NCBI GenBank assembly: GCA_902775895.1
Contig: CACYNO010000011.1
Location: forward strand, 1 to 40,688
Direction: 5' to 3'
Length of the DNA stretch: 40,688 nucleotides
Source: an uncultured Lachnospiraceae bacterium
GTDB taxonomy: Bacteria > Bacillota > Clostridia > Lachnospirales > Lachnospiraceae
Under the pieces are notes generated by a model, which was not told where the DNA came from, searched no databases, and was given only the letters and a program-made list of their open reading frames with translations. The position numbers were made by a program, and so were the translations under genes. Shown here one piece after another: positions 15,084 to 37,219 of the stretch. Position 1 is the stretch's first letter. Every line of letters begins with the position of its first letter.

Positions 15084-15149
15084 AGGGGGGATTCTACAAT
15101 ACGCAAAGGAAGATCGGGCACTGATATCAATCAAAAGGACACTGCTACA

Positions 15150-19916: not shown

Positions 19917-22376
19917 ATGGAGAGAAGAAGACCAAGAGGACGTGACACATCAGGTATGGGTCAGTCATTTAACGGCAGCACGGGAAGAAGAGGAAACGGA
20001 CTGGGAACAGGTCCCGTAGGTTCCACGGGAGGCAGTTCCGGAGGAGGTCCTTCAGGTGGCGGTTCCGCAGGAGGAGACAAAGGACTGCTCAGCAATCTTG
20101 CAGGGCAGGTCCTGGGAGGCGGCAACAGCTCATCCTCATCATCCACTTTGGGATCCCTTCTGGGGAATATGACATCGGGAACTTCAACCGGGAATACCAC
20201 TACGACAGGAAGCGGCTTCAAAGGCGGCAAGCTTATAATGATACTTGCAATCTGCGGAGTAATAGCGGCTCTCGGAGCATCATGTGCAGGTATCAATTCA
20301 TCATCCGGACTGGGGAACCTGCTCAGCAGTGCAACAGGCGGTGATACCACTTTGTTCGGAGGGAACTCTTCAACGAGTACCGGATGGACTGATAATGCTT
20401 CAAATGTCTACAACCTCAACACATCGGTTGCAGACGGATCAAGAAGCAAATATACAAATATCATCGGCAACGGGCAGGATAAAGTTACCATAATGGTCTA
20501 TATGTGCGGATCTGACTTAGAGACGAACTCCGCTATGGCTACAAAAGACCTCCAGGAGATGGCAGCAGCCAATATAGGTGAAAATGTAAATGTTATAGTT
20601 TATACAGGCGGTGCCAACAAATGGAACAACAACGTTATAAGCAACAAGGTAAACCAGGTCTACAGGGTAACGGACGGCGGACTTGAGAGACTTGTGGAGG
20701 ATGCGGGTACGGGCGGATTGAACGATCCTGCAACCCTCAGCGCATTTATCAAGTGGACTAAGGAGAAGTATCCTGCAAACCGTAACCAGCTTATTCTCTG
20801 GGATCACGGCGGCGGTTCCCTTTCGGGATTCGGCTATGACGAGAAGAACGCAGGCAGGGGATATATGTCTCTTGTAGAGATAAATAATGCTCTTGCGGAT
20901 GCAGGCGTGAAGTTTGACTTTATCGGATTTGACGCATGCCTTATGGCGACTACGGAAAATGCGCTTATGCTCGATAAGTATGCAGACTACCTCATTGCAT
21001 CAGAAGAGACGGAGCCGGGTATCGGCTGGTACTACACCAACTGGCTGAACAAGATATCAGAGGATACGTCCCTTCCCACCACAAGTCTTGGTAAGATCAT
21101 AATCGATGACTTTACCGCAGAGTGTGCCTCAAGGACACCGGGTCAGAAGACCACCCTTTCTCTTGTAGACCTTGCAGAACTTTCAAATACCGTTCCTTCA
21201 AAGTTATCATCATTTTCTAAAGATATATGCGACAAGATTGCCAAGGCTCATTACAGTGAAATATCATCGGCAAGGAATAACACAAGGGAATTTGCAAGAT
21301 CCACACGAATAGATCAGATTGATTTTGTAAACCTTGCCCAGAATATTAATACGGAAGAAGGAAAAGAACTTGCCGAAGCCATCAAGGGAGCGGTTAAATA
21401 TAACAGGACATCTGCCAATATGACTGATGCATACGGTCTTTCCGTATACTTCCCGTACTCAAGCGTGGGCAAGGTTACTACTGCGATCAAGACTTACAAT
21501 GCCATCGGCATGGATGCTGACTACACTAAGTGCATCCAGGAGTTTGCCGGAGTGGAGGCTTCAGGTCAGACATCGCCTCTCGGTAGCTCAAACTCCCTGA
21601 ATTCACTCTTTGATATACTCAGCGGCGGAAGCAGCTACAACAGTTCATATGATTCTGCGTCACAGGGACTTTCATCATCACTTCTGAACGGTCTCTTCGG
21701 AGGAAGGGGAAAAGAAGCTGCAGATACATATGTATCCGAGAATACATTTGACGCATCCAAGCTCGTATGGCACAAGGATAAAGACGGCAACAACCTTATC
21801 AAGCTTTCAGACGAGCAGTGGGAGCTTGTGAACAGTCTTGACATGAATATGTTCCTTGATGACGGTGAAGGTTATATAGATCTTGGTCTGGACAATATTT
21901 ACGAATACAACGAAGACGATGATATGATCGCCGACACTAACAAAAAATGGATAGGAGTGAACGGGCAGACTGTTGCTTACTATCATGAAAGCACCGTAAA
22001 CAACGGAGCAGGTGACGTGACCAACGGCTACATCCCGGCACTGTTAAACGGCAGAAGGGTTAATCTTCTCGTAACCTTTGACAGTGTAAACGCCGGCGGA
22101 TACATATCCGGTGTTGAATATGTTTACGCAAGTGATGCGCCTCTCGGAAAGATCGAGGGTGAGGTGAATAAGGGGGATAAGATTGACTTCCTTTGTGACT
22201 ACTATACATATGATAAGAAGTACAGTGACAGCTATAAGTTAGGAAAACAGCTTGTAGTCGGCGAGGAAGGACTCTCCATAACATTACAGGATATGAGCGG
22301 GGAGAGGATCGTGGAGAGTTATCTGTTTACTGATATCTACGACAACTGCTACTGGACACCGACACTGACGTTGTGA
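19917..22376 (+). CDS. Membrane-anchored clostripain-family (C11) cysteine peptidase
   Basis: About 819 residues from ATG 19917, where GGAGG lies just before; the earlier ATG 19905 contains that site and is unlikely. The N-terminal 100 residues are Gly/Ser/Thr-rich and disordered, followed by a transmembrane helix (LIMILAICGVIAALGASCAG). The C11 catalytic domain then shows TIMVYMCGSDLETNSAMAT, His297 in LWDHGGGSLSG and Cys341 in GFDACLMATTENA, the caspase-like dyad of clostripain. These enzymes cut after Arg/Lys and usually self-activate. The C-terminal third (about residues 560-819) has no motif I know. A TATAAT at 19869-19874 gives it a possible own promoter, though it also follows the TPM gene by 64 bp. 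Its stop codon lies inside the left end of element A copy 1. Confidence 0.9.
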   Translation: MERRRPRGRDTSGMGQSFNGSTGRRGNGLGTGPVGSTGGSSGGGPSGGGSAGGDKGLLSNLAGQVLGGGNSSSSSSTLGSLLGNMTSGTSTGNTTTTGSGFKGGKLIMILAICGVIAALGASCAGINSSSGLGNLLSSATGGDTTLFGGNSSTSTGWTDNASNVYNLNTSVADGSRSKYTNIIGNGQDKVTIMVYMCGSDLETNSAMATKDLQEMAAANIGENVNVIVYTGGANKWNNNVISNKVNQVYRVTDGGLERLVEDAGTGGLNDPATLSAFIKWTKEKYPANRNQLILWDHGGGSLSGFGYDEKNAGRGYMSLVEINNALADAGVKFDFIGFDACLMATTENALMLDKYADYLIASEETEPGIGWYYTNWLNKISEDTSLPTTSLGKIIIDDFTAECASRTPGQKTTLSLVDLAELSNTVPSKLSSFSKDICDKIAKAHYSEISSARNNTREFARSTRIDQIDFVNLAQNINTEEGKELAEAIKGAVKYNRTSANMTDAYGLSVYFPYSSVGKVTTAIKTYNAIGMDADYTKCIQEFAGVEASGQTSPLGSSNSLNSLFDILSGGSSYNSSYDSASQGLSSSLLNGLFGGRGKEAADTYVSENTFDASKLVWHKDKDGNNLIKLSDEQWELVNSLDMNMFLDDGEGYIDLGLDNIYEYNEDDDMIADTNKKWIGVNGQTVAYYHESTVNNGAGDVTNGYIPALLNGRRVNLLVTFDSVNAGGYISGVEYVYASDAPLGKIEGEVNKGDKIDFLCDYYTYDKKYSDSYKLGKQLVVGEEGLSITLQDMSGERIVESYLFTDIYDNCYWTPTLTL

Positions 22377-22678
22377 TCTGACAGATCATTTTTTAGCTGA
22401 TATAAAAAACAGCTCCCGTGTTCTGTCTTTCCAAACTGTAGAATCCGATCGTGAAAAATTTACAGAGCAATGATCCGGTGTAAGCACGAATAAAAGGCAT
22501 AAACTCAAAAGCTGCGACAGGAATTACCCTGTCGCAGCTTTTTCAAACAATATGCTTTTTATTCGTACACCGGATCACTGCTCTTAATTTTTCGGATCGT
22601 CTTCTGATGTTAGGAAAGATAGACAGGGAGCTGATCATTTTTAATATCGGTCGTTGATGCCATGCTGATCACAACATC
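22367..22678 (+). repeat. Element A, copy A1: 312-nt nested imperfect palindrome
   Basis: Ends are GACGTTGTGATC (22367-22378) and GATCACAACATC (22667-22678), inverted with 11/12 match. Moving inward, AGCTCCC..TCTGTCTTTCC (22411-22432) pairs with GGAAAGATAGACAGGGAGCT (22613-22632). AATCCGATCGTGAAAAATT (22442-22460) pairs with 22584-22598. GATCCGGTGT (22472-22481) pairs with ACACCGGATC (22567-22576). ACGAATAAAAGGCAT (22486-22500) pairs with 22552-22566. The centre is a perfect 15-bp hairpin. The outer right arm is followed by TGATCATTTTTAATATC. The left end contains the C11 peptidase stop codon. It shares a 20-mer, CTTTCCAAACTGTAGAATCC (22427-22446), with copy A3. Confidence 0.8.
22507..22543 (+). 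terminator. Inner perfect hairpin of A1, intrinsic terminator
   Basis: AAAAGCTGCGACAGG (22507-22521) and CCTGTCGCAGCTTTT (22528-22542) form a perfect 15-bp stem with a 6-nt loop ending in a T-run. It would stop transcription from the C11 peptidase gene inside element A1. Confidence 0.8.
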
Positions 22679-22752
22679 GATGACGGTGCCGGATATATAT
22701 TATTTGTGAATCAACGCATCCAATGCCGGAATGTATTTTTGGCAAAAAAAAG

Positions 22753-22825
<73 letters not shown>

Positions 22826-22838
22826 AAACACAAGATGT

Positions 22839-22867
22839 ATAATACATTAACAGAGCGGAATTGTCAA
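22839..22867 (-). promoter_or_regulatory. tRNA-Gly promoter
   Basis: On the minus strand TTGACA (rc of 22862-22867), a 17-bp spacer and TATTAT (rc of 22839-22844), 13 bp before the tRNA 5' end. A near-perfect strong vegetative promoter. Confidence 0.85.
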
Positions 22868-22960
22868 GGATTTCTGACAGGATTTCTATTTTATCCGGAC
22901 ATATAAATATGCCTGTAAACCATTTAATACAACCTTGAAATTAAGACGGACTACGGAGCT

Positions 22961-23167
22961 GACGTTGTGATCCGGTACAGCGGCAGTGGCTGATATTAAA
23001 AAAGATCAGCTCCCTGCCGCAGCTTTTGAGTTTATGCTTTTTATTCGTGCTTACGCCGGATCATTGCTCTGTAAATTTTTCAGGATCGGATTCTACGGTT
23101 TGGAAAGGCAGAGCATGGGAGCTGACTTTTAATATCAGCCACAAACGATCTGTCAGATCACAACACC
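22961..23167 (-). repeat. Element A, copy A2: internally deleted, inverted relative to A1
   Basis: Ends GACGTTGTGATC (22961-22972) and GATCACAACACC (23156-23167). Read on the minus strand, it begins 15 bp after the pncB stop codon. Bases 23019-23124 match the reverse complement of A1 22410-22515 with 7 differences in 106 by hand alignment. The other half of the palindrome is missing. The outer stem is retained: GGCTGATATTAAAA..CAGCTCCC on one side, GGGAGCTGATCTTTTTTAATATCAGCC (rc of 22988-23014) on the other, the latter giving a T-run on the pncB transcript. A further 10-bp inverted pair ATTAAGACGG/CCGTCTTAAT (22940-22949, 23178-23187) encloses it. Confidence 0.8.
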
Positions 23168-23182
23168 ATCTACGGGCCCGTC

Positions 23183-24637
23183 TTAATGAAGAAACTCCTT
23201 TTTACTGTGGTTTTTCAGCAGCTCCTGTTTCAGGTCGTAAAGCTCTTGCGATAGGTCCACATGAACCTCGTGGGGATTAAGAAGTCGCTTCGACTCCTCC
23301 CATATGGAGTCAAGCTCCTTTTCCCTCAGACTCCTGATCTCGTCTACACCCGGTGATTCATAGACGCACTCCCCGTCCTTAAACACTGTCACAAGCAAAG
23401 GCTTGATACGGAAATGCCCCGGTTCAAGCACAGTACGCTTCCATGGCTCGTTGGGATCAAAAAGTTCCAGGGGAGTGTCTTCGTCATACTTTTCGTGAGC
23501 CAGTGCGATAAGATCCGCAAATATCTTGCCGGAATCATCATATATCCTGTATATGACCTTATCACCGGGATCGGAGATCTTTGCAACATTTTCGGAGATC
23601 TTTATTGTGGGGATCATTTCTCCTTTTTCATTCTGGATGGCTGCAAGCTTATATACGCCTCCGAAAGCAGGATTATCTTTAGCGGTGATCATATTGGTGC
23701 CCACACCCCAGGAATCTATACGTGCGCCCTGGGAAATAAGAGAAGCTATCAGGTGCTCGTCAAGGTCACTGGATGCGGAAATTATGGCATCCTCAAAGCC
23801 GGCTGCGTCAAGCATCTCTCTTGCCTTTTTTGAAAGGTAGGCAAGGTCACCGGAATCAAGTCTTATACCGTAGAGTTTGGGCTTTATCCCGGCATCACGC
23901 ATCTCCGTAAACACCTTTATGGCGTTCGGAACACCGGAGAGGAGAGTGTCATAGGTGTCTGCAAGAAGAATGCAGTTGTCCGGATATATCTCGGAATAAG
24001 CTTTGAATGCCTCATATTCACTCCCAAAGCTCATGATCCAGCTGTGGGCATGTGTGCCCAGAGGAAGCATGTCAAACATCTTTGCCGCAAGGACATTACT
24101 TGTACCCATGCATCCTGCGATGACGGCGGCTCTTGCGCCGTAGATGCCTGCATCCGGTCCCTGGGCGCGTCTGAGACCGAACTCCATAACATTGTTCTTT
24201 CCAGCGGTCTCTACCACGCGGGAAGCCTTTGTGGCTATGAGGCACTGGTGATTAACAATGTTAAGGAGAGCTGACTCCATAAGCTGCGCCTGGTCTATAG
24301 GTGCGATTATCTTCATCATGGGCTCTCTGGGAAAGATCACGCTTCCTTCCGGGATAGCGTAGATATCACCGGTGAATCTGAAGCCTTCAAGATATGTAAG
24401 AAAGTCGTCATCGAATTTGCCGGTGGATCTTAAATATTCAATGTCGTCTTTTTCAAACCTTAAGTTTCTGACATACTCTATAGCCTGCTCCAGACCGCAG
24501 CAGATGGCGTATCCGCCGCCGAAAGGATTCCTGCGGTAGAACATGTCAAATATAACTTTCTTGTTATTATTCTTTTTGAAATGTCCCTGCATCATAGTAA
24601 GTTCGTACAGGTCAGTAAGTAAGGTAAGATTTCTCAT
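23183..24637 (-). CDS. pncB: Nicotinate phosphoribosyltransferase
   Basis: Encodes 484 residues from ATG 24637. Opening LTDLYELTMMQGHFK, then DMFYRRNPFGGGYAICCGLEQ, VNHQCLIATKASRVVETAG, EFGLRRAQGPDAG (active-site His/Arg region), HAHSWIMSFGSEYEAF and RLDSGDLAYLSKKAREMLDAAGF with the PRPP-binding site. It makes nicotinate mononucleotide from nicotinate and PRPP in NAD salvage. It starts 6 bp after the small membrane-protein gene, so the two are co-transcribed. The ribosome site is weak, which suggests coupling. Its 3' end abuts element A2. Assignment is secure. Confidence 0.95.
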   Translation of the reverse strand: MRNLTLLTDLYELTMMQGHFKKNNNKKVIFDMFYRRNPFGGGYAICCGLEQAIEYVRNLRFEKDDIEYLRSTGKFDDDFLTYLEGFRFTGDIYAIPEGSVIFPREPMMKIIAPIDQAQLMESALLNIVNHQCLIATKASRVVETAGKNNVMEFGLRRAQGPDAGIYGARAAVIAGCMGTSNVLAAKMFDMLPLGTHAHSWIMSFGSEYEAFKAYSEIYPDNCILLADTYDTLLSGVPNAIKVFTEMRDAGIKPKLYGIRLDSGDLAYLSKKAREMLDAAGFEDAIISASSDLDEHLIASLISQGARIDSWGVGTNMITAKDNPAFGGVYKLAAIQNEKGEMIPTIKISENVAKISDPGDKVIYRIYDDSGKIFADLIALAHEKYDEDTPLELFDPNEPWKRTVLEPGHFRIKPLLVTVFKDGECVYESPGVDEIRSLREKELDSIWEESKRLLNPHEVHVDLSQELYDLKQELLKNHSKKEFLH

Positions 24638-24643
24638 ATAATA

Positions 24644-25084
24644 TTAAAAGAACTTTAATCCTTTCTTCTTTTGCGGCACGGTGTCTGCAGTCTTGGAAGC
24701 TTTGATGGGAACAAAGCCCGTTATATAGATACCGCTGACACTGGCTTTTACGTTGGTCTTTAAAGGTATCGTCTTAAATACATCCTTTTCCGCAACAAAG
24801 GTCATGATCCTGGGACCTACCTTTGCCTTAACTATGGGCATCATTCTTCTCAAATAACGCTTGGGCGCTTCCGCCACAACCATCTTGGGAAGTCCCGCGT
24901 CTCTTAAACGCATTTTCTTCTTGTCTATGATGAGCATGGTGATGGTCTCTTTCGTCTCATCGATCATCTGCTGCTGTTCGTCGGCTCTTCTTTCAAACTT
25001 CTTCTTAAGAGTGAAGTTGAAAATGATAAAAGCGGCAACAACAGCTAAGCCGATAATGATTATTATCATTAACCAGATTGGCAT
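24644..25084 (-). CDS. Single-pass membrane protein, function unknown
   Basis: Encodes 146 residues, ATG 25084 after GGAGGGG. One N-terminal transmembrane helix (residues about 4-26, IMIIIIIGLAVVAAFIIFNF) is followed by a short basic coiled-coil stretch (KKKFERRADEQQQMIDETKE), a DKKKMRLRDAGLPKM segment and a beta-rich C-terminus ending in a Lys-rich KKKGLKFF. Orientation is probably N-out with a basic cytosolic tail. I recognise no domain. It sits 6 bp before pncB and has its own promoter, so it leads a two-gene unit. A link to NAD salvage is only contextual. Confidence 0.7.
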   Translation of the reverse strand: MPIWLMIIIIIGLAVVAAFIIFNFTLKKKFERRADEQQQMIDETKETITMLIIDKKKMRLRDAGLPKMVVAEAPKRYLRRMMPIVKAKVGPRIMTFVAEKDVFKTIPLKTNVKASVSGIYITGFVPIKASKTADTVPQKKKGLKFF

Positions 25085-25119
25085 AATTTCCCCTCCATAA
25101 TAAAATAAAACTTCGATAG

Positions 25120-25147
25120 ATTATAGCATAATGACCTGAAAAAACAA
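25120..25147 (-). promoter_or_regulatory. Candidate promoter of the membrane protein-pncB unit
   Basis: On the minus strand TTGTTT (rc of 25142-25147), a 16-bp spacer and TATAAT (rc of 25120-25125), 35 bp before the start at 25084. Confidence 0.45.
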
Positions 25148-25168
25148 AGCCGGATCGGGCAGGGGATA

Positions 25169-25906
25169 TTACCTTCCTTTACCCGGTTCCAGATAAGCCT
25201 TTAGTATAAGTTCCCGTGTATATGCCGGGAGACTCTTTTGTTCCTCCTTTGAAAGCCCGGAGGTCTCGATCGGAGGCAGGAATTCCAGGGTGGTCTTTTG
25301 GGCGTGAAGCCACGGGAAATGTTTTTCAAATATTTCCCGTGTGCGGGTCTGAACCACGGGAACTATGGCGGCTCCCGTCTTTGTGGCAAGCTTAAAACTT
25401 CCGGCATGGAATTCCAAAACCCCTTCACCCTTATTTCTTTTTCCTTCTGGAAAGATCAGCATGGACGTACCGTTTTTTATAAGCTCTATTCCGTCAAGGA
25501 TGGCCTGCATGTTCTGGCGCATGTTACCCGCTTCAAGAAAGATACAGTTTATACGCTTCATCCATGAACTGATGGCGGGAGCTTTTTTCAGACCGATCTT
25601 TGAATAGATAGCCGTAGGACATGGCATGTACGTGTAGGAAATAATAAGGTCATAGTAACTTCTGTGATTGCCCATAAAGACTACGGGTCTGTCCTTAGGG
25701 ATATTTTCAAGGCCGTAAACCTTTGGCGCGGAGCCGCTCAGGAAGATCAGAGCCCTGAATCCTATGGTGATGACCTTGTAGCTGAACTCCACAGCCTTCA
25801 CCGGATTTTTCTTTCGTATGAAAAACTCCACCGGCAGGAGTATAAGGCTTGCCAGCATAAATAAACCCACATATATAAGACTTATTATCGTTCTTATAAA
25901 AGGCAT
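25169..25906 (-). CDS. plsC: 1-acyl-glycerol-3-phosphate acyltransferase (PlsC family)
   Basis: Encodes 245 residues, ATG 25906, with AAGGAGG supplied by the last codons of apbE. An N-terminal hydrophobic segment (residues 5-27) anchors it. Acyltransferase motifs: MGNHRSYYDLII (HX4D catalytic pair, His near residue 81), MKRINCIFLEAGN, LIFPEGKRNKGEG (FPEGxR, glycerol-phosphate binding) and FKLATKTGAAIVPV. It acylates lysophosphatidic acid in phospholipid synthesis at the cytosolic face. The gene begins 2 bp after apbE ends, so the pair is translationally linked. The exact acceptor is not certain from sequence. Confidence 0.88.
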   Translation of the reverse strand: MPFIRTIISLIYVGLFMLASLILLPVEFFIRKKNPVKAVEFSYKVITIGFRALIFLSGSAPKVYGLENIPKDRPVVFMGNHRSYYDLIISYTYMPCPTAIYSKIGLKKAPAISSWMKRINCIFLEAGNMRQNMQAILDGIELIKNGTSMLIFPEGKRNKGEGVLEFHAGSFKLATKTGAAIVPVVQTRTREIFEKHFPWLHAQKTTLEFLPPIETSGLSKEEQKSLPAYTRELILKAYLEPGKGR

Positions 25907-25908
25907 GT

Positions 25909-26910: not shown

Positions 26911-26947
26911 GGTTAAAAAATTTCCCGTCATTAATAGTATTCGAAAC

Positions 26948-26977
26948 ATTATAACAAATAAAAGAAATTTTTGTGAA
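26948..26977 (-). promoter_or_regulatory. apbE promoter
   Basis: On the minus strand TTCACA (rc of 26972-26977), an 18-bp spacer and TATAAT (rc of 26948-26953). It overlaps the furthest-upstream possible apbE start codon, supporting the downstream start. Confidence 0.5.
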
Positions 26978-27075
26978 GATTGTAATGTAAATATTTAATT
27001 TTTCCTGTATATGTGTTATAAGTATTAACATGTTACTATTTTTAATAATGTTTGCTTAGGAAGGTGAAGGAGATT

Positions 27076-28362: not shown

Positions 28363-28388
28363 TAAAAAACAGATATAAAGGCAAAAAG

Positions 28389-28541: not shown

Positions 28542-28652
28542 TGGTTACTATAACATAATTGCCTGATAAGTGCTGTGAAAATATTGTGAAAAACAAATAA
28601 GCGTGAGTAAACGGAATTTAAAAACTGTTTCAACCCGGGTGGTCCGTTCTGC

Positions 28653-28681
28653 TTGACGATAAATGTTTTTTCAGATACCAT
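28653..28681 (+). promoter_or_regulatory. Candidate metK promoter
   Basis: TTGACG (28653-28658), a 17-bp spacer and TACCAT (28676-28681), 40 bp before metK. The leader would be about 34 nt, too short for a SAM riboswitch. I see no S-box or other SAM riboswitch motif upstream. Confidence 0.45.
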
Positions 28682-28721
28682 GTTATGAAGTTGTATCGAT
28701 TTGAAAGGAAGAGGTATATAA

Positions 28722-29900
28722 ATGGAAAAAAGATTATTTACTTCAGAATCAGTAACTGAAGGGCATCCTGATAAGATATGCGATCAGGTTTCGGATTCCA
28801 TCCTTGATGCTATTTTTGCACAGGATCCGTATGCCAGAGTAGCCTGTGAGACTCTTACAAACACTGGCTTTATCATTGTTATGGGAGAGGTTACCACCAC
28901 GGCTCAGGTGGATATCCCCACGGTCGTAAGAAAGACCGTTACCGAGATAGGATATGATTCATCCGAGAAAGGATTTGACGGAAATACCTGTGCGGTTATG
29001 GTTGCGCTTGACAAGCAGTCACCGGATATTGCCCAGGGTGTGGATAATGCCATCGAGACAAGAGACGGAGACGGTTCTGACCTTGACACCGGTGCCGGTG
29101 ACCAGGGAATGATGTTCGGATATGCCACCAACGAGACTGAGGAGTACATGCCTTATTCCGCAGCTCTTGCACAGAAGCTTTCACGTCAGCTTGCAAAGGT
29201 AAGAAAAGACGGAACTCTCGGTTACCTCAGACCGGACGGAAAGACCCAGGTAACGGTGGAATATGATGAGAACAACAAGCCTGTAAGGCTTGATGCCATA
29301 GTTGTATCCACACAGCATGCGCCGGATGTGGAGCAGGAGCAGATCCATAAGGATATCAAGAGATTTGTCATCGATGCCATTGTTGATTCCAGCATGGTCG
29401 ATGATGACACTAAGATATACATCAATCCCACAGGCCGCTTCGTTATCGGCGGACCTAACGGAGACAGCGGTCTTACGGGACGTAAGATCATAGTTGACAC
29501 CTACGGCGGTGCAGCAAGACACGGCGGCGGTGCATTTTCCGGAAAAGACTGTACCAAGGTTGACCGATCGGCAGCTTATGCTGCAAGATATGTGGCAAAG
29601 AATCTGGTGGCTGCAGGTATAGCCGACAGGATCGAGATTCAGGTGTCTTACGCCATCGGTGTTGCAACCCCCACATCTATCATGGTTGATACATTCGGTA
29701 CGGGAAAGCTTGATGATGATAAGATCGTGGAGATCATCAGAAAAGAGTTTGATCTTCGTCCGGCCGGTATCATCAAGATGCTTGATTTAAGAAGACCGAT
29801 CTACGGACAGACGGCAGCGTACGGACACTTCGGACGTACGGATGTCGAGCTTCCGTGGGAGCAGCTCGATAAGGTGGAGGCTTTGAAAGCGTACATCTGA
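28722..29900 (+). CDS. metK: S-adenosylmethionine synthetase
   Basis: Encodes 392 residues, ATG 28722 after GAAAGGAAGAGG. Motifs in order: [20 protein letters not shown] (ATP and metal site), GADQGMMF-type [61 protein letters not shown] (P-loop-like) and [12 protein letters not shown]. Makes SAM from methionine and ATP in the cytosol. Full length. It is a single gene with a promoter upstream and palindrome B1 acting as terminator 14 bp after the stop. Confidence 0.97.
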
Positions 29901-29913
29901 GTTTGATATATAT

Positions 29914-30001
29914 CCCCCGGTGACTGCCTTTTTGCTCCCGGAGGAATTCTTGCGAATTCCTCCAACGTCGCAAAAAAGCAACACCGGGGGATTATTTTTT
30001 T
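29914..30001 (+). terminator. Element B, copy B1: compound palindrome and terminator of metK
   Basis: A 77-nt imperfect palindrome (29914-29990) followed by a T-run to 30001. Outer stem CCCCCGGTG..TGCCTTTTTGC against GCAAAAAAGCA..CACCGGGGG. The inner hairpin GGAGGAATTC-TTGC-GAATTCCTCC is a perfect 10-bp stem. The sequence is a near copy, inverted, of B2 at 30194-30273. Confidence 0.8.
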
Positions 30002-30193
30002 CCCCTGTACGCTTTCATATATTTTAAATATTTTAATTGGAAACCGGAAAATTTCATTAAGCGTTAAAAGGATTAGTTATATTATCATGATATTTTTTTG
30101 TGGTCAGGAGAGATAATTGCAGAATATCTTTTCTGTCTTGTTTGAAAAGTCATGCAGGGGTTTATTGAAACATACAGAGTACCAACAACATAC

Positions 30194-30273
30194 CTTCCCG
30201 GCATTGCTTTTTTGCGACATTGGAGGAATTCGCAAGAATTACTCCGGGAGCAAAAAGGCAATTGCCGGGGAAG
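30194..30273 (-). repeat. Element B, copy B2: palindrome inverted relative to B1
   Basis: CTTCCCGGC at 30194-30202 pairs with GCCGGGGAAG at 30264-30273. The inner arms around GGAGGAATTCGCAAGAATT match the reverse complement of B1 with only a few changes. It lies upstream of the mreB-like start at 30363. Here the inner hairpin carries a mismatch (ATTACTCC), and no T-run follows on the minus strand, so it is less terminator-like than B1. Confidence 0.75.
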
Positions 30274-30362
30274 AATTTTATAGTTTTATTATTTTTTATA
30301 CCTTGATATCATGTCGTTTTACGTTTAAAATAAGTACCGGTTTACAATTGAAAGGGGACATC

Positions 30363-31361
30363 ATGTTATCTGCTGACATAGGAATAGATCTTGGTACAGC
30401 GAGCATTCTTGTATATATAAAAGGTAAAGGCGTAGTTTTAAAAGAGCCTTCCGTAGTAGCATTTGATCAGGAACAAAACAAAATAAAGGCAATAGGAGAA
30501 GAAGCCCGTCTTATGCTGGGTCGTACGCCGGAGAATATCGTGGCGGTAAGACCTTTAAGACAGGGCGTTATTTCCGATTACAAAGTAACGGAAAAGATGC
30601 TGAAGTATTTCATAGACAAGGCTGTAGGCCGGCATCTTTTCAGAAAGCCCCGCATCAGCGTGTGTGTGCCTTCGGGGGTTACCGAAGTTGAGAGACGTGC
30701 CGTTGAGGATGCGGCTATCCAGGCGGGAGCAAGGGAAGTAGCTATTATCGAGGAGCCCATTGCTGCGGCTATCGGAGCGGGTATAGACATCTCAAAGCCA
30801 TGTGGGAATATGATCGTGGATATCGGTGGAGGTACCACAGACATCGCAGTTATTTCCCTGGGTGCGACGGTTGTCAGCACGTCCATAAAGATAGCGGGAG
30901 ACGACTTTGACGAGTCCATCGTGCGTTACATGAGAAAAAAGCACAACCTTCTCATAGGAGAGAGGACTGCAGAGGAGATAAAGATACAGGTGGGATGCGC
31001 TTATCCGCTGCCTGAAGTAAGGACCATGACCGTAAAGGGAAGAAACCTTGTTACGGGGCTTCCAAAGTCGGTGGAGATAGATTCAGATGAGATGGAAGAA
31101 GCGCTCCGGGAAGATACGGGACAGATCGTGGAGGCGGTAAAGAGCGTTCTTGAGAGGACTCCGCCTGAGCTTTCTGCTGATATCGCAGAGAGAGGTATCG
31201 TGCTTACGGGAGGCGGAAGCCTTCTTACGGGGCTTGAAGAACTCCTTGAAGCAAAGACAGGAATACATACGGTCACTGCTAAAGATCCCATGACCGCAGT
31301 AGCTATAGGAACCGGGAAATTTGTGGAATTTATGGCCGGAAAGCGGGATTTTCAGGATTGA
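30363..31361 (+). CDS. MreB/Mbl-family rod-shape actin homologue
   Basis: Encodes 332 residues from ATG 30363, chosen for AAAGGGGAC just before it. The frame stays open to TTG 30117, but that extension runs through palindrome B2. Actin-fold motifs: ADIGIDLGTASILVYIKGKG (phosphate 1), RPLRQGVISDYKVTEKMLKYF, VCVPSGVTEVERRAVEDAA, EEPIAAAIGAG, VDIGGGTTDIAVISLG (phosphate 2) and GIVLTGGGSLLTGLEELL (adenosine site). It polymerises under the membrane and guides wall synthesis. No mreC or mreD follows, which fits a stand-alone Mbl/MreB-like copy. Its downstream neighbours include ddl and murF. Whether it is Mbl, MreB or MreBH is not decided. Confidence 0.92.
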   Translation: MLSADIGIDLGTASILVYIKGKGVVLKEPSVVAFDQEQNKIKAIGEEARLMLGRTPENIVAVRPLRQGVISDYKVTEKMLKYFIDKAVGRHLFRKPRISVCVPSGVTEVERRAVEDAAIQAGAREVAIIEEPIAAAIGAGIDISKPCGNMIVDIGGGTTDIAVISLGATVVSTSIKIAGDDFDESIVRYMRKKHNLLIGERTAEEIKIQVGCAYPLPEVRTMTVKGRNLVTGLPKSVEIDSDEMEEALREDTGQIVEAVKSVLERTPPELSADIAERGIVLTGGGSLLTGLEELLEAKTGIHTVTAKDPMTAVAIGTGKFVEFMAGKRDFQD

Positions 31362-31363
31362 TC

Positions 31364-33613
31364 ATGGGAGATATTTCAGATAACAGCATAGAGGGTTATG
31401 TTGAATCCGTTATATTTCAGAATGAGGAAAACGGCTACTGCGTTATCACCATGTCGGTAAATCTTGCTGAGCTTACCTGCGTTGGTACGCTTCCGGGGAT
31501 CTCACAGGGGATGTACATATCCTGTAAGGGAAAGTATGTGCAGCACCCGGTGTATGGTGAGCAGTTTTCGGTTGAATCATTTACGGTAAAAGAGCCTCAC
31601 AGCCGTGAGGCTTTTCTTCGTTTTGTCTCAAGCGGTATCATTCCCGGCATCAGGAAAAAGAACGGACAAAAGATCGCCGACAGGTTCGGGGATGATTCCT
31701 ACCGCATCATGCTTGAAGAGCCCGAGACTCTTGCAAAGGAGATAAAGGGCATTTCTTTAAATCAGGCATATGGATTCCAAAAATCCCTTATCGATAACAG
31801 ACAGATAAACGATGCCCTTATTTTTTTGCAGGGCATGGGTATAGGGAATGTGCTGGCAAAGAAGATTTACGCTTTTTATGGCGAGGACATGTACACGGTC
31901 TTAAAAGAGAACCCCTACAGACTCACAGAGGATATAGAAAATGTAGGCTTTAAGACTGCTGATGAATACGTGAGAAGATCCGGGCTAAAGGTAAGTCTTG
32001 AGAACCGGGTACGCGCCGCCTGCCTGTATGCCCTTGAAAGAGGAGTGGCAGACGGACACTGCTATCTGCCGGCGGATGTATTAAAGGAACGTACGGAAGA
32101 GTTTATCGGAAGCAGTTTAAACGAATTTGACAGTATATTGGCGGACCTGTCCGTAGAGTCCAGGCTTACGGCACGTTTATCGGAAGACGGGGAAATAAGG
32201 GTTTATCTTCCCGCCTATTTCAACATGGAGCAAAACGTCGCCGTAAGGCTCGGGGAGATCGACAGGGCACGTAAACCGGAGCCCGCTGGTCTAAAAGGGC
32301 TGGATGAAAAGATAAGGTGTGTTGAAGAAGAGACCGGCATAGAACTTGACGCAAAGCAAAAGGAAGCGGTAATAAATGCCATGGAAGGCGGCGTGCTGGT
32401 TATAACCGGAGGTCCCGGTACGGGAAAGACTACGGTGATAAATTCCATAATCAGGGTGTTTTCCGACATGGGACTTGATATAAAGCTTGCAGCGCCTACA
32501 GGCAGGGCGTCCAAAAGGATGAGCGAGGCCTGCGGAATGGAAGCCTGTACCATACACAGACTTTTAGGTTACAGTCCTTATGGTGCAGGAGAGGACGAGC
32601 CTGCATATATGAAATTCGAGTACAACGATGATAACAGGCTTGAAGGCGATGTGGTGATAATAGACGAGATGTCCATGGTGGATCTGTGGCTTATGAACGC
32701 ACTGATGAACGCGTTAAACACCGGCACCCGTCTTATCCTTGTGGGAGACAGCAACCAGCTGCCCAGTGTGGGAGCCGGCAATGTACTTGGGGACATCCTG
32801 GATTCAGGATGCTTTAAATCGGTGTGTTTGGAAAAGATCTTCAGACAGGCACAGAGCAGCGATATAGTTGTGAATGCACATAAGATAAATAAAGGCGAGA
32901 AGGTTGATCTTGATGCTGAAAGCAAAGATTTTCTCTTTATTAAAAGAGATGAGCCGGACAAGATCATCTCGGCCATGTACACCCTTGTTATGGAAAAGCT
33001 TCCGGATTATGTAGGGGCATCCGTAAATGACATACAGGTCCTTACCCCGTCCAGGACTTCAAAGACCGGAGTGGAGAGATTAAACCGCATACTTCAGGAG
33101 CTCATAAACCCGCCCGGTGCTGACAAAAGAGAGCGTCAGGTAAGAGATAACATTTTCAGGGTGGGGGATAAAGTCATGCAGATAAAAAATGACTATGACC
33201 TTGAATGGGTGCGTATATTTGAAGACGGCATGCGTGAGCGGGGAACAGGTGTGTACAACGGTGATATAGGCGTGATCACTGGGATCAACGAATTTGCCGA
33301 GACCCTGAAAGTTATTTTTGATGACCAAAGGGAAGTTGAATATGACTTTGACATATTGGAAGAACTGGAGCTGGCTTATGCCATAACCATTCACAAGGCC
33401 CAGGGAAGCGAGTACCCGGCAGTGGTGATCCCCATGTATCCTGCACCTAAGATGCTTATGAACCGTAAGCTCTTATATACCGCCGTGACCAGAGCGAGAA
33501 AATGCGTGTGCATGGTGGGGATAAAAGATTGTTTTGAACAAATGGAGGAAAATATATTTGAATCGCAGAGATATTCGGCATTATCTGAAGCTATCAGGCA
33601 AAATAATACTTGA
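31364..33613 (+). CDS. recD2: RecD2-like ATP-dependent DNA helicase
   Basis: 749 residues from ATG 31364, 2 bp after the mreB-like stop (TTG 31358 is an alternative). N-terminal OB-like region (EGYVESVIFQNEENGYCVI), then helix-hairpin-helix segments (FLQGMGIGNVLAKKIYAFYG; ENVGFKTADEYVRRSG). Superfamily 1 helicase motifs: Walker A TGGPGTGKTT (from about residue 349), APTGRASKRM, IIDEMSMVD (Walker B), VGDSNQLPSVGAGNVL (motif III), EKIFRQ, LTPSR and the C-terminal AITIHKAQGSEYPAVVIP with YTAVTRAR. RecD2 unwinds DNA 5' to 3' in repair without RecBC. Intact. Confidence 0.95.
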   Translation: MGDISDNSIEGYVESVIFQNEENGYCVITMSVNLAELTCVGTLPGISQGMYISCKGKYVQHPVYGEQFSVESFTVKEPHSREAFLRFVSSGIIPGIRKKNGQKIADRFGDDSYRIMLEEPETLAKEIKGISLNQAYGFQKSLIDNRQINDALIFLQGMGIGNVLAKKIYAFYGEDMYTVLKENPYRLTEDIENVGFKTADEYVRRSGLKVSLENRVRAACLYALERGVADGHCYLPADVLKERTEEFIGSSLNEFDSILADLSVESRLTARLSEDGEIRVYLPAYFNMEQNVAVRLGEIDRARKPEPAGLKGLDEKIRCVEEETGIELDAKQKEAVINAMEGGVLVITGGPGTGKTTVINSIIRVFSDMGLDIKLAAPTGRASKRMSEACGMEACTIHRLLGYSPYGAGEDEPAYMKFEYNDDNRLEGDVVIIDEMSMVDLWLMNALMNALNTGTRLILVGDSNQLPSVGAGNVLGDILDSGCFKSVCLEKIFRQAQSSDIVVNAHKINKGEKVDLDAESKDFLFIKRDEPDKIISAMYTLVMEKLPDYVGASVNDIQVLTPSRTSKTGVERLNRILQELINPPGADKRERQVRDNIFRVGDKVMQIKNDYDLEWVRIFEDGMRERGTGVYNGDIGVITGINEFAETLKVIFDDQREVEYDFDILEELELAYAITIHKAQGSEYPAVVIPMYPAPKMLMNRKLLYTAVTRARKCVCMVGIKDCFEQMEENIFESQRYSALSEAIRQNNT

Positions 33614-34307
33614 CGGAATATACCCAAGAGGCTGCGTGGTATGTGGAAGCCCCTTGGAGTTTGATAAAAGGGATCATCCGGAGAGGACACATGAGGAATG
33701 CATGGAATTTTTAAAACCTGTGGACGGTCCCGTGTGCTGTAAATGCGGAAAGAAGATAAACGCGGATGAGACAAGGTGCTCAGACTGTAAGGGTACTGAG
33801 AGGATATTTGACGGAGCTGTCTCCGTATTTGAATACAATAATGCGATCAAGGAAAGCATCTACAGATTTAAGTACAAGAACAAAAGAGAGTATGCCTCTG
33901 CTTTTGCATATATGATCGCAAAAAATCAAAAGCGTATCATCGAGCACTGGCAGCCGGATGTGGTGATACCCGTGCCCATGCATCCTGACAAAAAGAAGGT
34001 GAGAGGTTACGATCAGGCAGAGATACTTGCCAAGGAAACGGCTGATATCTTCCGCATAAGGATGGACGGTGATACCCTTGTACGAAAGAAGCAGACCGTG
34101 CCCCAGAAGGAGCTGAGCACAAAAAAAAGATACATGAACCTTGAGGGCGCCTTTGAGGCAAGGAAAAGCTTAAAAGGCAAAAAGGTGCTTTTGATAGATG
34201 ATATCTATACCACAGGCGCCACCTTTGATTCCTGTGCCCATGTATTAAAAAGGGCCGGAGCGGAAAAAGTGTACGGTGCTTCCCTTTGTATCGGACGCGT
34301 TATGTGA
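33558..34307 (+). CDS. comF: ComF family phosphoribosyltransferase-like protein
   Basis: About 249 residues from TTG 33558, chosen because GGAGG at 33544-33548 is 9 nt upstream; TTG 33534 has no site. It overlaps the end of recD2 by 56 bp. The N-terminal zinc finger has CVVCGSP and CCKCGKKI..CSDCKG. It is followed by FDGAVSVFEYNNAIKESIYRFKYKNKREYA and the PRTase-like domain: VVIPVPMHPDKKKVRGYDQA, RKKQTVPQKELSTKKRYMNL and the PRPP loop VLLIDDIYTTGATFDSC. ComF is needed for late DNA uptake in competent bacteria but is widely kept in species with no known competence. Pairing with RecD2 fits a DNA-processing role. Confidence 0.92.
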   Translation: MNRRDIRHYLKLSGKIILDGIYPRGCVVCGSPLEFDKRDHPERTHEECMEFLKPVDGPVCCKCGKKINADETRCSDCKGTERIFDGAVSVFEYNNAIKESIYRFKYKNKREYASAFAYMIAKNQKRIIEHWQPDVVIPVPMHPDKKKVRGYDQAEILAKETADIFRIRMDGDTLVRKKQTVPQKELSTKKRYMNLEGAFEARKSLKGKKVLLIDDIYTTGATFDSCAHVLKRAGAEKVYGASLCIGRVM

Positions 34308-34342
34308 TAAAATTTATAAAAATATTTTTGGAGGCTTCATAT

Positions 34343-35398
34343 ATGAAAGTAACGGTTCTTGCAGGCGGAACAAGTACGGAGCGTGACGTTTCCCTTGTTA
34401 CTTCGGTAAAGGTTTGTACGGCTTTAAGAAAACTGGGTCATAAAGCAAATGTTGTGGATGTGTTTTTCGGCTCTGATGTTTATGCAGACGGGGATGCATT
34501 TTTTGCAGATGATAACGACCTTGAAAAACTGGGAAAAGAATTAAAAGAAAAAACCCCGGAAGTAAAAGACGAGATAAAAAGACGCAAGCAGACAAAGGGC
34601 GAATTTTTCGGACCTAAGGTACTGGAATTCTGCAGGGAAGCAGACATTGTATTTATGGGATTACACGGTGAAAACGGTGAGAACGGAAAAGTCCAGGCAG
34701 TTCTCGATCTTTCCGGGATAAAGTATACCGGACCGGGGAGCCTGAGCAGTGCCTTATGCATGGATAAGGATATTACAAAAAAGATCCTGATTCCTGAGGG
34801 TATCCCAATGCCCAAAGGTGTGACACTGCTTCGTTTTGAAAATACCGTAAGCGAAGAAGAACTTCCTCTTCCCTGTGTGGTAAAGCCTGCCTGCGGAGGA
34901 TCCAGCGTAGGTGTTACCATAGCAAAGACGGCAGATGAAAGAGCGGAAGCCATAAAAGAAGCCTTCAGACTTGAGGAAAAAGTTCTTGTGGAAGAGTACA
35001 TAAGCGGAAGGGAATTTTCCGTGGGTGTATGTGACGGTGAGGCGCTGCCGGTGATCGAGATCATTCCCGATGGCGGTGTTTATGATTATGAGCATAAGTA
35101 TGATCCCAATGGAGCAAAGGAGATATGCCCTGCGGAACTTCCCGAGGAGACATCAAGAAGGATGCAGTACTGGGCCGAGAGAGCATGTGAGGCGGCAGGA
35201 ATCGATACATATTCCAGAGTGGATGAGTTGTTAGATGAAGATGGTGAGATCTACTGTCTTGAGATAAATACCCTGCCCGGTATGACTCCTACATCACTTC
35301 TGCCCCAGGAGGCTGCAGCCATAGGGCTTTCCTATGAGGAGCTTGTACAAAAGCTTATTGACGTTTCTTTAGATAAACGTAACGATGATACTTTTTAA
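34343..35398 (+). CDS. ddl: D-alanine-D-alanine ligase
   Basis: Encodes 351 residues from ATG 34343 (GGAGG 8 nt before). ATP-grasp ligase: start VTVLAGGTSTERDVSL, IVFMGLHGENGENGKVQ, KYTGPGSLSSALCMDK, VVKPACGGSSVGVT (ATP-binding loop), VEEYISGREFSVGV and EINTLPGMTPTSLLPQ. It joins two D-Ala for the peptidoglycan stem peptide. It contains an insert of about 35 residues (DNDLEKLGKELKEKTPEVKD) between the first strand region and LEFC. The next gene is murF, whose product uses its dipeptide. Assignment secure. Confidence 0.95.
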   Translation: MKVTVLAGGTSTERDVSLVTSVKVCTALRKLGHKANVVDVFFGSDVYADGDAFFADDNDLEKLGKELKEKTPEVKDEIKRRKQTKGEFFGPKVLEFCREADIVFMGLHGENGENGKVQAVLDLSGIKYTGPGSLSSALCMDKDITKKILIPEGIPMPKGVTLLRFENTVSEEELPLPCVVKPACGGSSVGVTIAKTADERAEAIKEAFRLEEKVLVEEYISGREFSVGVCDGEALPVIEIIPDGGVYDYEHKYDPNGAKEICPAELPEETSRRMQYWAERACEAAGIDTYSRVDELLDEDGEIYCLEINTLPGMTPTSLLPQEAAAIGLSYEELVQKLIDVSLDKRNDDTF

Positions 35399-35427
35399 AT
35401 CCCGTTTTTTAAAAGGAGAAAAATGTC

Positions 35428-36801
35428 TTGGATAAGATGACCGTGGAACAGGCGGTAAATGCCTGTGCAGGAGAATTCAAAGGAGACAGAGGATTTTTTG
35501 ACAGGGAGATAACTTCCCTTGTGACCGATTCAAGAAAGGTCATACCCGGAGGTGTGTACGGTGCCATAAAGGGTGAGCGTGTGGACGGGCATGGCTTTAT
35601 CGGATCAGCATTTGATGCCGGGGCATTCCTTGTGGTGGGTGAAAAAGATTTTGACCCGGAGGGTAAAGGCGTATATGTAAAGGTACCCTCAACAGTGGAA
35701 GCTGTAGGCCGTGTTGCGAGGGAATATATGAAGATACTGGATATTCCCGTTGTGGGGATAACGGGAAGCGTGGGAAAGACCAGCACAAAAGAAGTGATAG
35801 CTGCCGTGCTTGCGCAGGAATATGTCACCGGAAAGACTCTGGGGAACCACAACAACGAGATAGGGCTTCCCCTTACCTGTTGTGAGATGGATTCCGAAAC
35901 CGAGGTAGCAGTTCTTGAGATGGGCATATCTGCGCCGGAGGAGATGGACTATCTTACCGGGATCGTACAGCCTGAAGTGGCAGTGATCACAAATATCGGC
36001 GTAACGCATATGGAGATACTTGGAAGCAGGGAAGGTATCTTTGAAGAAAAAAGCAAGATATATAAGAATATACCAAAGGAAGGTCTGGTTATCTTAAACG
36101 GTGACAACGACATACTCAGTCAGGTAAAGGATACACCTGCGGGAAAGCCGCTGTTTGTCGGACTGGAAGATAAGAACGATATTTATGCAGAGGATATCAG
36201 AGAAGAGGGACTTTCCGGATCATCCTTTATCATCAAAGGATTAAACTGTGGTGATCTCGAAGTGCATATTCCCATTCCCGGGAGGCACATGGTGACCAAT
36301 GCCCTTGCTGCGGCAGCAGTGGGAGAATATTTCGGGCTTTCCGCCGGGAGCATACAGAAAGGTATCGCATCTGTTGAGACCGTTTCCGGAAGGACGAACA
36401 TAAGGCAGGTAAATGGCATAACAGTCATTGATGACAGCTACAACGCATCTCCCGTATCCATGATGTCTGCAATTGATACCCTTTGTCTTGCCGATGGCAG
36501 AAAGATATGTGTTCTTGGAAACATGTATGAGCTGGGTGACGACTCCCTGAAGATGCACAGGCAGGTGGGGGAATACGCTGCGTCGAAAAATGTGGATGTT
36601 CTTTTTACCTGCGGGGATATGGCAAAAGAGATCGCGGAAGGCGCGAAAGGCCGTGTAGGAGATATACGATGCTTTGATGATAATGAGGCGCTTGTCAAGG
36701 AACTGGAAGCTGTGCTGCGTGAAGGTGATGCGGTTATGATCAAGGCGTCCAACAGTATGAAGTTCGGGGATGTTGCAAAGGCGTTGATGGGAGATGGATG
36801 A
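35428..36801 (+). CDS. murF: UDP-MurNAc-tripeptide:D-Ala-D-Ala ligase
   Basis: Encodes 457 residues from TTG 35428, 9 nt after AAAGGAG; ATG 35437 is an alternative. Mur ligase domains: N-terminal DSRKVIPGGVYGAIKGERVDGH (UDP-substrate domain); central ATPase with GITGSVGKTSTKEVIAAVL (P-loop), TLGNHNNEIGLPLT (MurF signature), EMGISAPEEMDYLTGIVQP and TNIGVTHMEILGS; C-terminal VIDDSYNASPVSMMSAID and LGNMYELGDDSLKMH. It adds D-Ala-D-Ala to the muropeptide, the last cytosolic peptide step. It lies 29 bp after ddl. Element A3 begins 6 bp after its stop. Confidence 0.96.
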   Translation: MDKMTVEQAVNACAGEFKGDRGFFDREITSLVTDSRKVIPGGVYGAIKGERVDGHGFIGSAFDAGAFLVVGEKDFDPEGKGVYVKVPSTVEAVGRVAREYMKILDIPVVGITGSVGKTSTKEVIAAVLAQEYVTGKTLGNHNNEIGLPLTCCEMDSETEVAVLEMGISAPEEMDYLTGIVQPEVAVITNIGVTHMEILGSREGIFEEKSKIYKNIPKEGLVILNGDNDILSQVKDTPAGKPLFVGLEDKNDIYAEDIREEGLSGSSFIIKGLNCGDLEVHIPIPGRHMVTNALAAAAVGEYFGLSAGSIQKGIASVETVSGRTNIRQVNGITVIDDSYNASPVSMMSAIDTLCLADGRKICVLGNMYELGDDSLKMHRQVGEYAASKNVDVLFTCGDMAKEIAEGAKGRVGDIRCFDDNEALVKELEAVLREGDAVMIKASNSMKFGDVAKALMGDG

Positions 36802-36807
36802 TTTCAG

Positions 36808-37092
36808 GCGCAGAGGACAGGGTGGATGATCTTAAAAACAGCTCCCCGTGATCTGCCTTTCCAAACTGTAGAATCCAACCCTGAAAAATTAAAAGAGCGG
36901 CCAAATCGTTTGGACACAAAAGCCGTGCATAATGCTGCATAAAAACTTTATCTATGGAAAGTGATATAGCAGCTATGCACGGCATTTGTAAACGATTTAG
37001 CCGCTCTTAATTTTTCGGCTTGGCTTCTAATGTTCGGAAAGACAGACACGGGAGCTTTTTTTTTAATGATCATCCACCACCATCCTCTGTGC
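36808..37092 (+). repeat. Element A, copy A3: 285-nt nested imperfect palindrome
   Basis: Outermost arms 36808-36831 and 37068-37092 pair (GCGCAGAGG..TGGATGATC with GATCATCCA..CCTCTGTGC). Inward, GCTCCCCGTGATCTGCCTTTCC pairs with GGAAAGACAGACACGGGAGC (37036-37055). Then GAAAAATTAAAAGAGC pairs with GCTCTTAATTTTTCGG (37003-37018). The innermost stem is GCCGTGCATA (36922-36931) with TATGCACGGC (36974-36983). The right outer arm runs straight into nine T. The 20-mer at 36857-36876 is identical to A1 22427-22446, and 37003-37018 is identical to A1 22580-22595. Terminal and inner sequences differ from A1 yet still pair. Confidence 0.8.
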
Positions 37093-37219
37093 TGAATATA
37101 AATTATTTAGTGTTTATCCAAAATTCGTATTATTAAAATATAAAAAAGTGTGATAATATATGAACAGTGGTATAAAAACTATGTTTAATTTTTTCCATTT
37201 GGCGGAAAGGAGAAGTATC

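What the first reader, a model, noticed from the sequence alone, without database searches (positions are those of the whole stretch)
22367..37092. Element A: a dispersed family of giant hairpins fixed at gene 3' ends
Three copies (22367-22678, 22961-23167, 36808-37092) share blocks on both arms: the 20-mer CTTTCCAAACTGTAGAATCC (one mismatch in A2) and a GGGAGCT-type right arm next to a T-run. A1 and A3 also share GCTCTTAATTTTTCGG. Each abuts the stop codon of an unrelated gene (C11 peptidase, pncB, murF). All have the same orientation relative to that gene, even though pncB is on the other strand. Such orientation bias argues for a function in the transcript, such as a giant intrinsic terminator or structured 3'-UTR, rather than random insertion. 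I know of no described family with this sequence, but could not search.
Basis: partly seen in the sequence, partly recalled or inferred. Interest (0 to 1): 0.88.

Follow-up and report, generated by a model that had tools for sequence, protein, structure and literature searches.

The report
Giant hairpin repeats at gene ends
A bacterium carries dozens of copies of an unnamed DNA repeat that folds into a very long hairpin, mostly just after genes; its two arms stay matched although its sequence drifts, and in a related species such hairpins sit nested inside one another.

Summary
A1 and A3 are intact hairpins of about 290-340 nt; A2 has lost most of its right core arm; a degraded fourth copy lies near 15000. 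I count 41 copies in the genome (38 by covariance model, 3 partial by BLAST). A sense gene or tRNA lies upstream of 35, within 108 nt in 30. But 22 lie between convergent genes, where orientation says little; 18 tandem cases split 13 sense to 5 antisense. The family was found in 3 of 11 genus genomes, and only in the own genome of 299 drawn from the family; no Rfam match. Pairs covary strongly, mostly by two-sided changes. T-tracts follow the core base on the gene strand. Outer arms are locus-specific yet complementary, sometimes copying the coding end; a sister species has a nested two-unit hairpin. Best reading: palindromic repeats serving as terminators, kept paired and enlarged by DNA template switching. 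Against a simple mRNA role, the antisense strand folds better in 29 of 31 copies. No target-site duplication over the set; no Y1 transposase or RVT_1 reverse transcriptase match in the genome.

The parts
22353..22691 (+). Copy A1: giant hairpin after the C11 peptidase gene; outer arms overlap the stop codon
   Evidence: fold -158 kcal/mol, z -16.3; extent
22427..22446 (+). A1 left core motif CTTTCCAAACTGTAGAATCC
22508..22544 (+). A1 inner terminator-like hairpin (A-tract, GC stem, T-tract) at the tip of the giant hairpin
   Evidence: sequence, fold
22599..22618 (+). A1 right core motif (TTCTGATGTTAGGAAAG)
22752..22825 (-). tRNA-Gly between A1 and A2
22940..23190 (-). Copy A2 after pncB: left core arm and outer arms kept; of the right core arm only the base GGGAGCTG with its T-run
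36803..37096 (+). Copy A3: giant hairpin after murF
   Evidence: fold -157 kcal/mol, z -14.9; extent
36857..36876 (+). A3 left core motif
37022..37041 (+). A3 right core motif
37056..37064 (+). A3 run of nine T directly after the GGGAGC core base
   Evidence: sequence; 8 of 8 T
14990..15120 (-). Copy A4: degraded mini copy (TGTAGAATCC ... TTCTAATGTCTG around a terminator-like hairpin)
   Evidence: model R1 hit 15002-15114, E 1.7e-4; sequence and fold

Best explanation
A family of palindromic repeats, found so far in one bacterial genus, that has spread to the 3' ends of unrelated genes. Each full copy is a layered hairpin: a conserved core with fixed internal loops, a variable tip that is often itself a terminator-like hairpin, a GC clamp at the core base followed in most copies by a T-rich stretch, and, in about half the copies, clearly complementary outer arms specific to the locus. 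Shown: family, position, pairing, T-rich stretches, locus-specific complementary outer arms, a nested two-unit hairpin in a sister species. Inferred: (1) the copies work as intrinsic terminators, often serving both genes of a convergent pair, and cap the mRNA 3' end; (2) the arms are kept complementary mainly at the DNA level, by replication template switching from one arm to the other, which also extends the palindrome outward, at times into the coding end, and can nest units. How the core first moved between loci is not shown.
For: 41 copies, 38 by model and 3 partial by BLAST; sense feature upstream in 35 of 41 and within 108 nt in 30 of 41; 22 of 41 between convergent genes against 16 of 144 neighbouring pairs in stretches of the same genome without copies. 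At least 6 T in 8 after the core base in 14 of 31 copies on the gene-sense side (8 of 31 on the other; 11.6% of random 26-mers from the same loci). Covariation: 34 of 60 pairs with two-sided change, 96.9% of cells paired against 84.3% shuffled, 0 of 500 shuffles for four of the five measures, 19 of 500 for the fifth. Two-sided changes in 182 cells against 15 one-sided, 10 of those in one pair, as single-event template switching predicts (PMC8794818, abstract and passages). Outer arms: 14 of 29 score 12 or more against 5 of 812 mismatched flank pairs; their mismatches show no clear strand preference (G-T 16, A-C 21, transversions 58). Coding-end inverted copies: 6 of 30 at score 11 or more against 18 of 870 controls; the mecA end copied is shared in part with relatives. 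Nested symmetric units in G001.
Against: The antisense strand of the core is the more stable in 29 of 31 copies, by 14 kcal/mol on average, which a sense-strand terminator does not explain. Internal loops kept in all or nearly all of 24 aligned copies would be erased by unchecked arm correction, so some selection on them is needed. In one of the two common core types the tip hairpin has its own T-tract, so transcription might end before the right arm is made. 8 of 31 copies have fewer than 5 T in 8 around the core base. Covariation counts are of sequences, not independent events. 15 of 29 outer-arm pairs do not reach score 12. Of the six coding-end matches one is a trivial tRNA-tRNA match and one is equalled by a control; the window copy A1 scores 10, equalled by 1 of 29 controls. 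No RNA data exist here.
Confidence: 0.5

Rival explanations
1. Non-autonomous mobile palindrome of YPAL type that inserts into existing palindromic terminators: the locus-specific outer arms are the two halves of the old terminator.
For: Spread to unrelated genes; orthologous gene ends in genus relatives mostly lack it and carry other hairpins (judged by eye); one copy lies in the place of another's tip (C2:154317-154616) with a possible 14-bp flanking direct repeat; outer-arm strength is within the range of ordinary gene-end hairpins here, and T-tracts after outer stems are about as frequent as after ordinary stems by the same measure, 4 of 15 against 5 of 19; YPAL targets span or adjoin dyad symmetry (PMC2229807, section 11).
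Against: No target-site duplication over the set: 2 of 29 own flank pairs against 35 of 812 controls. If the last four stem bases are counted, 11 of 19 ordinary stems have a T-tract; the outer stems were not scored that way. Some arms run into coding sequence. No transposase was identified, but only Y1 transposases were sought.
Confidence: 0.25
2. Structured antisense RNA: the element is a non-coding RNA read from the strand opposite to the upstream gene.
For: Antisense strand more stable in 29 of 31 copies; alifold -83 against -56 kcal/mol on 27 of 31 cores; median longest uninterrupted helix 15 against 11 bp; seen in G001 too (-377 against -335).
Against: 13 of 41 copies have no gene reading in on that strand; T-tracts are weaker on that side, 8 of 31 against 14 of 31; no promoter was sought or shown; wobble columns are partly shared by descent.
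Confidence: 0.1
3. Strand-selective folded single-stranded DNA substrate of a recombinase, working like an integron attC site: one strand folds better, with conserved bulges, fixed to the 3' side of genes.
For: Strand asymmetry of the core but not of the outer arms, conserved loops and bulges, 3' position and orientation bias; attC sites pick their strand by such features (PMC2727003, abstract and passages). The genome has tyrosine recombinases; one passes the cut-off of an NCBIfam model described as 'site-specific tyrosine recombinase/integron integrase' (NF040815).
Against: Core boxes do not fit the attC consensus as recalled; no match over the cut-off of the integron-integrase model TIGR02249 (none of the 14 control genomes passes it either); host genes look like core genes, not cassettes.
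Confidence: 0.1

Closest known systems
YPAL/RU-2 of Yersinia (about 168 bp)
   Same: Large intergenic palindrome, many copies, no TA termini, targets at or near dyad symmetry, may affect upstream transcript (PMC2229807, section 11)
   Different: Other host; YPAL makes target duplications of 3-26 bp, none found over the set here; locus-specific outer arms and nesting are not mentioned in the section read; sequences were not compared
bcr1-bcr18 repeats of the Bacillus cereus group
   Same: Dispersed intergenic repeats, some with conserved secondary structure, some in UTRs (PMC3446304, passages)
   Different: bcr1-3 are described as MITE-like; sequences were not compared; nesting not mentioned in the passages seen
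REP/BIME and GTAG or CGTC palindromes
   Same: Palindromic, extragenic, many copies
   Different: Stems of 5-13 bp, GTAG type linked to RAYT transposases (PMC3733652, passages); here the arms exceed 100 bp and no Y1 transposase match was found in the genome
Integron attC sites
   Same: Imperfect palindrome 3' of genes, one strand folds better, unpaired central parts and extrahelical bases (PMC2727003, abstract and passages)
   Different: No integron-integrase match over cut-off, no cassettes, core boxes differ (consensus recalled)
Ordinary intrinsic terminators
   Same: A-tract, GC clamp, T-tract
   Different: Far longer stem, shared core sequence, strand asymmetry reversed

Membership tests
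Stem-loop repeat (SLS/palindromic repeat) family | Many dispersed copies sharing sequence and a common stem-loop | tested here: met
   41 copies, 34 of 60 pairs covary in 24 cores
MITE / YPAL | Target-site duplication | tested here: not met
   2 of 29 flank pairs against 35 of 812 controls; one copy placed inside another has a possible 14-bp repeat
MITE | Parent transposon sharing the terminal repeats | not tested
   only Y1 transposase (no match) and RVT_1 reverse transcriptase (no match) were sought in the genome
REP with RAYT | Short stem tagged by GTAG at one end, linked Y1 transposase | tested here: not met
   PF01797: 0 matches in the genome, 95% complete; stem far longer
attC | RYYYAAC and GTTRRRY core boxes | tested here: not met
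   most cores read TCCAAAC and GTTCGGA at the comparable places; consensus recalled
attC | Integron integrase in the genome | tested here: inconclusive
   TIGR02249: 7 matches, 0 over cut-off. Of two recombinases scanned, one passes NF040815 (XerA type, described as recombinase/integron integrase), the other passes no cut-off and is nearest XerC/XerD; further loci were not scanned
attC | One strand folds better, with conserved unpaired features | tested here: met
   antisense better in 29 of 31; conserved loops
Intrinsic terminator | GC stem followed by T-tract | tested here: met
   14 of 31 with at least 6 T in 8, 22 of 31 with at least 5 (random 26-mers 11.6% and 30.6%); not every copy
Intrinsic terminator | Transcription ends there | not testable with these tools
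   no RNA data
Any Rfam family | Match over gathering score | tested here: not met
   only tRNA in the window and in six loci; in five loci at E up to 5 only tRNA passes gathering; a few sub-threshold matches overlap the hairpins

The most novel reading that the evidence does not exclude
Gene-end palindromes that grow and nest: a repeat whose conserved core acts as a strand-selective folded single strand, bound by an unknown protein, and whose arms are corrected and extended outward by template switching, so that copies build an inverted copy of their own host gene's end and can stack units into hairpins of 600 nt or more.
Probability: 0.2. Interest if true: 0.82.

Novelty: new variant of a known kind. 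Interest (0 to 1): 0.58.

Why it matters
Template switching has been proposed to create and maintain RNA hairpins (PMC8794818, abstract and passages). This family offers dozens of loci in one genome where matched two-sided changes, locus-specific arms and nested units can be read directly, and where the proposal can be tested in strains. It also shows very long palindromes, generally held to be unstable (recalled), persisting beside housekeeping genes, and it gives a case where a terminator-like hairpin carries its wobble pairs mainly on the strand opposite to the gene.

Tried and rejected
RAYT/REP: no Y1 transposase match in the genome (the control search rings in 5 of 14 genomes). Reverse-transcriptase mobility: no RVT_1 match (control 3 of 14). 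Other transposase families were not sought. Integron: no integrase over cut-off (no control genome passes it), recombinases Xer-like or XerA-type; kept as a weak rival. Known RNA: Rfam. General abundance of long palindromes: 1 inverted repeat of score 18 or more in 193 kb of this genome without copies. Target duplications: none over the set. Insertion into terminators judged by orthologues: undecided, the flanks are too diverged.

Literature: papers were searched; no paper describing this family was seen in those listings. Only abstracts, passages or one section were read. De Gregorio 2006 (YPAL) was not read.
Full report
What is there. A1 and A3 fold as single, nearly unbranched hairpins of -158 and -157 kcal/mol, z -16 and -15, with 0 of 100 shuffles as good for each. 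A2 keeps the left core arm and the outer arms, but of the right core arm only the base GGGAGCTG with its T-run is left; it folds to -98 kcal/mol, z -8.7. A1 and A2 lie in one convergent region, on either side of a tRNA-Gly gene, and share part of their outer arms (I1 and I13). The neighbours are a C11 peptidase, a nicotinate phosphoribosyltransferase and a Mur ligase. A degraded fourth copy lies at about 14990-15120, minus strand.

The family in the genome. The window is contig C11 of a 1.65-Mb, 14-contig assembly, 95% complete. BLAST with A3 and A1 gave 49 and 51 hits, both strands and half copies counted. A covariance model from 24 cores found 38 distinct places at E up to 0.001, by my count of the rows; with 3 partial copies seen by BLAST only (A2, C5:41221, C2:146897) I count 41. 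Contig C2 holds 16 of 41 (14% of the genome, p 8e-5) and C1 holds 5 of 41 (37% of the genome, p 6e-4); I cannot explain this. Host genes named by Pfam are rplT, manC, murF, pncB and the C11 peptidase; purC, mecA, trkA, serA and thiE are names I recalled from their sequences.

Position and orientation. With a simple codon-usage gene finder and ARAGORN, a gene or tRNA reads toward the element from its left side in 35 of 41 copies; in 30 of 41 its end is within 108 nt of the model start. Contexts: 22 convergent, 13 tandem sense, 5 tandem antisense, 1 divergent. In C1:100-300 kb (193 kb taken, without copies) 16 of 144 neighbouring gene pairs are convergent, so the family prefers convergent gaps (p 3e-11). 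Between convergent genes the upstream gene is sense in either orientation, so orientation must be judged on the 18 tandem cases: 13 to 5, one-sided p 0.048. Of 10 copies placed in relative G006, 8 have a sense feature upstream and 2 do not. The bias is present but modest.

Structure. On the 24-core alignment 60 pairs are predicted, 34 with two-sided changes. With that structure 96.9% of cells pair, against 84.3% in shuffles, and the covariation score is 0.348 against 0.122; 0 of 500 shuffles reach four of the five measures, 19 of 500 the fifth (further pair types); sliding the partner by one column drops pairing to 43-46%. Internal loops (TG opposite AT beside TAGAA/TTCTA; the AAC-type bulge opposite nothing) are kept in all or nearly all copies. 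Of changed cells 182 are two-sided and 15 one-sided, 10 of these in one pair. Counts are of sequences, not events. The rarity of intermediates fits copying of one arm onto the other in one event, as proposed for template switching (PMC8794818, abstract and passages), better than stepwise RNA selection.

Terminator features. Around the base of the core (GGGAGCTG then T) 14 of 31 copies have at least 6 T in 8 on the gene-sense strand and 8 of 31 on the other; random 26-mers from the same loci reach this in 11.6% (p 3e-6 and 0.02). After outer stems of score 12 or more a T-tract is present in 4 of 15, much as after ordinary gene-end stems by the same measure (5 of 19; 11 of 19 if the last stem bases are counted). 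In many copies the tip is also a terminator-like hairpin; in copies with a short core it is the main inner feature (L073, L081, window 15035-15083). So the anatomy is that of nested intrinsic terminators, often usable from both sides. Termination itself is inferred.

Outer arms. Beyond the core the flanks are largely specific to each locus, yet the two sides of one copy match each other: mean score 18.4 for 31 copies (29 here, 2 from G006) against 5.5 for 930 mismatched pairs, highest control 19.8 (includes shared base sequence). For the locus-specific part alone 14 of 29 reach 12 against 5 of 812; 19 of 144 ordinary gene ends here also have a hairpin that strong. Mismatches in these arms show no clear strand preference (G-T 16, A-C 21, transversions 58). 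In some loci the arm enters the coding end: 6 of 30 score 11 or more against 18 of 870 controls; one of the six is a trivial tRNA-tRNA match and one is equalled by a control. The clearest is mecA, where 21 of 23 positions of a piece of the coding end recur inverted downstream of the element; that protein end (NAVEALL) is shared with G006 and G001 by my reading, so copying went from gene to flank. The prs-type gene in G001 and element B in the window look alike in this by eye.

Relatives. BLAST found the family in 3 of 41 genomes (own and 40 relatives), all in the genus; the model found it in 3 of 11 genus genomes and, with stricter filters, only in the own genome of 299 drawn from the family, which included one other genus member. 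In G001 the element is stacked: downstream of a ribose-phosphate pyrophosphokinase gene the left arm has two units spaced about 150 bp, then a terminator-like tip, then two matching units in the right arm, in one hairpin of about 640 nt. Nine other G001 contigs end inside such units, so true array sizes are unknown. At six gene ends compared in the genus (32 orthologues, one without usable flank), most show no copy and other hairpins; serA in G006, manC in G001 and a fragment after murF in G001 look related (judged by eye).

A result against the simple reading. The core is more stable when read antisense to the upstream gene, in 29 of 31 copies, by 14 kcal/mol on average; G-U pairs are 149 of 2588 against 34 of 2494. 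The consensus energy of 27 cores is -83 against -56, and the median longest unbroken helix is 15 against 11 bp. A1 of the window is one of the two exceptions (-128 sense, -124 antisense). Ordinary gene-end hairpins show no such bias in this genome (antisense 16, sense 19, of 37) or in G009 (14 and 14 of 31), and a sense bias in G008 (24 and 50 of 80). Part of this comes from a few fixed columns shared by descent; in the sense-derived structure A-C columns still outnumber G-T columns, 15 to 11. Possible readings: the antisense RNA matters; the antisense single strand of DNA is recognised; or mismatches are wanted in the sense RNA, for instance to limit RNase III cutting. None is shown.

Comparison with known kinds. 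By general features it belongs with the stem-loop repeat families of bacteria. YPAL of Yersinia is nearest in size, position and relation to dyad symmetry (PMC2229807, section 11), but YPAL makes target duplications and none are seen over the set here (2 of 29 against 35 of 812). It does not fit a REP/RAYT system or a Rfam family, and it lacks the attC boxes as recalled; an integrase-like recombinase cannot be excluded, since one XerA-type protein is present. I call it a new variant of a known kind: the matched locus-specific arms, the nesting and the strand asymmetry go beyond what I saw described, within the searches listed under Tried and rejected.

Verdict. A real, unnamed family, found so far in one genus. 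Most likely it provides terminators at gene ends and owes its arm matching and growth to template switching (0.5); insertion into existing terminators is the main rival (0.25).

Noticed in passing
window 29884-30017 and 30195-30271: A second, unrelated pair of hairpins in inverted orientation (element B), the first directly after a reading frame ending at 29900; the coding end GAAAGCGTACA recurs inverted downstream, as in family A.
   Followed up: partly
window 691-758: A perfect palindrome with 33-bp arms and a 2-nt spacer between two convergent reading frames; copy number not searched.
   Followed up: no
L374-L376 (genus relative G002): Eight long inverted repeats in 60 kb, at least seven of one other family (GTGTGTCA..GGGGACAGTCCCTTTGTGTCA type), so different species of the genus carry different palindromic repeats.
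   Followed up: no
G000 contig C2 against C1: Copies are strongly clustered: 16 of 41 on C2 (235 kb) and 5 of 41 on C1 (613 kb). Cause unknown.
   Followed up: partly
L069 (G000:C2:154317-154616): A full copy sits where the tip of a second, half copy would be, with a possible 14-bp direct repeat at its ends.
   Followed up: partly
L339 (G000:C7, about 1500-3200): A Xer-like recombinase gene beside a gene that looks like a TIR-domain protein (TIR label recalled, no call).
   Followed up: no
window 6547-6890 and 38420-38850: Choline/cell-wall-binding-type repeats in two large genes (label recalled; repeats), and 63-bp repeats at 37447-38204.
   Followed up: no
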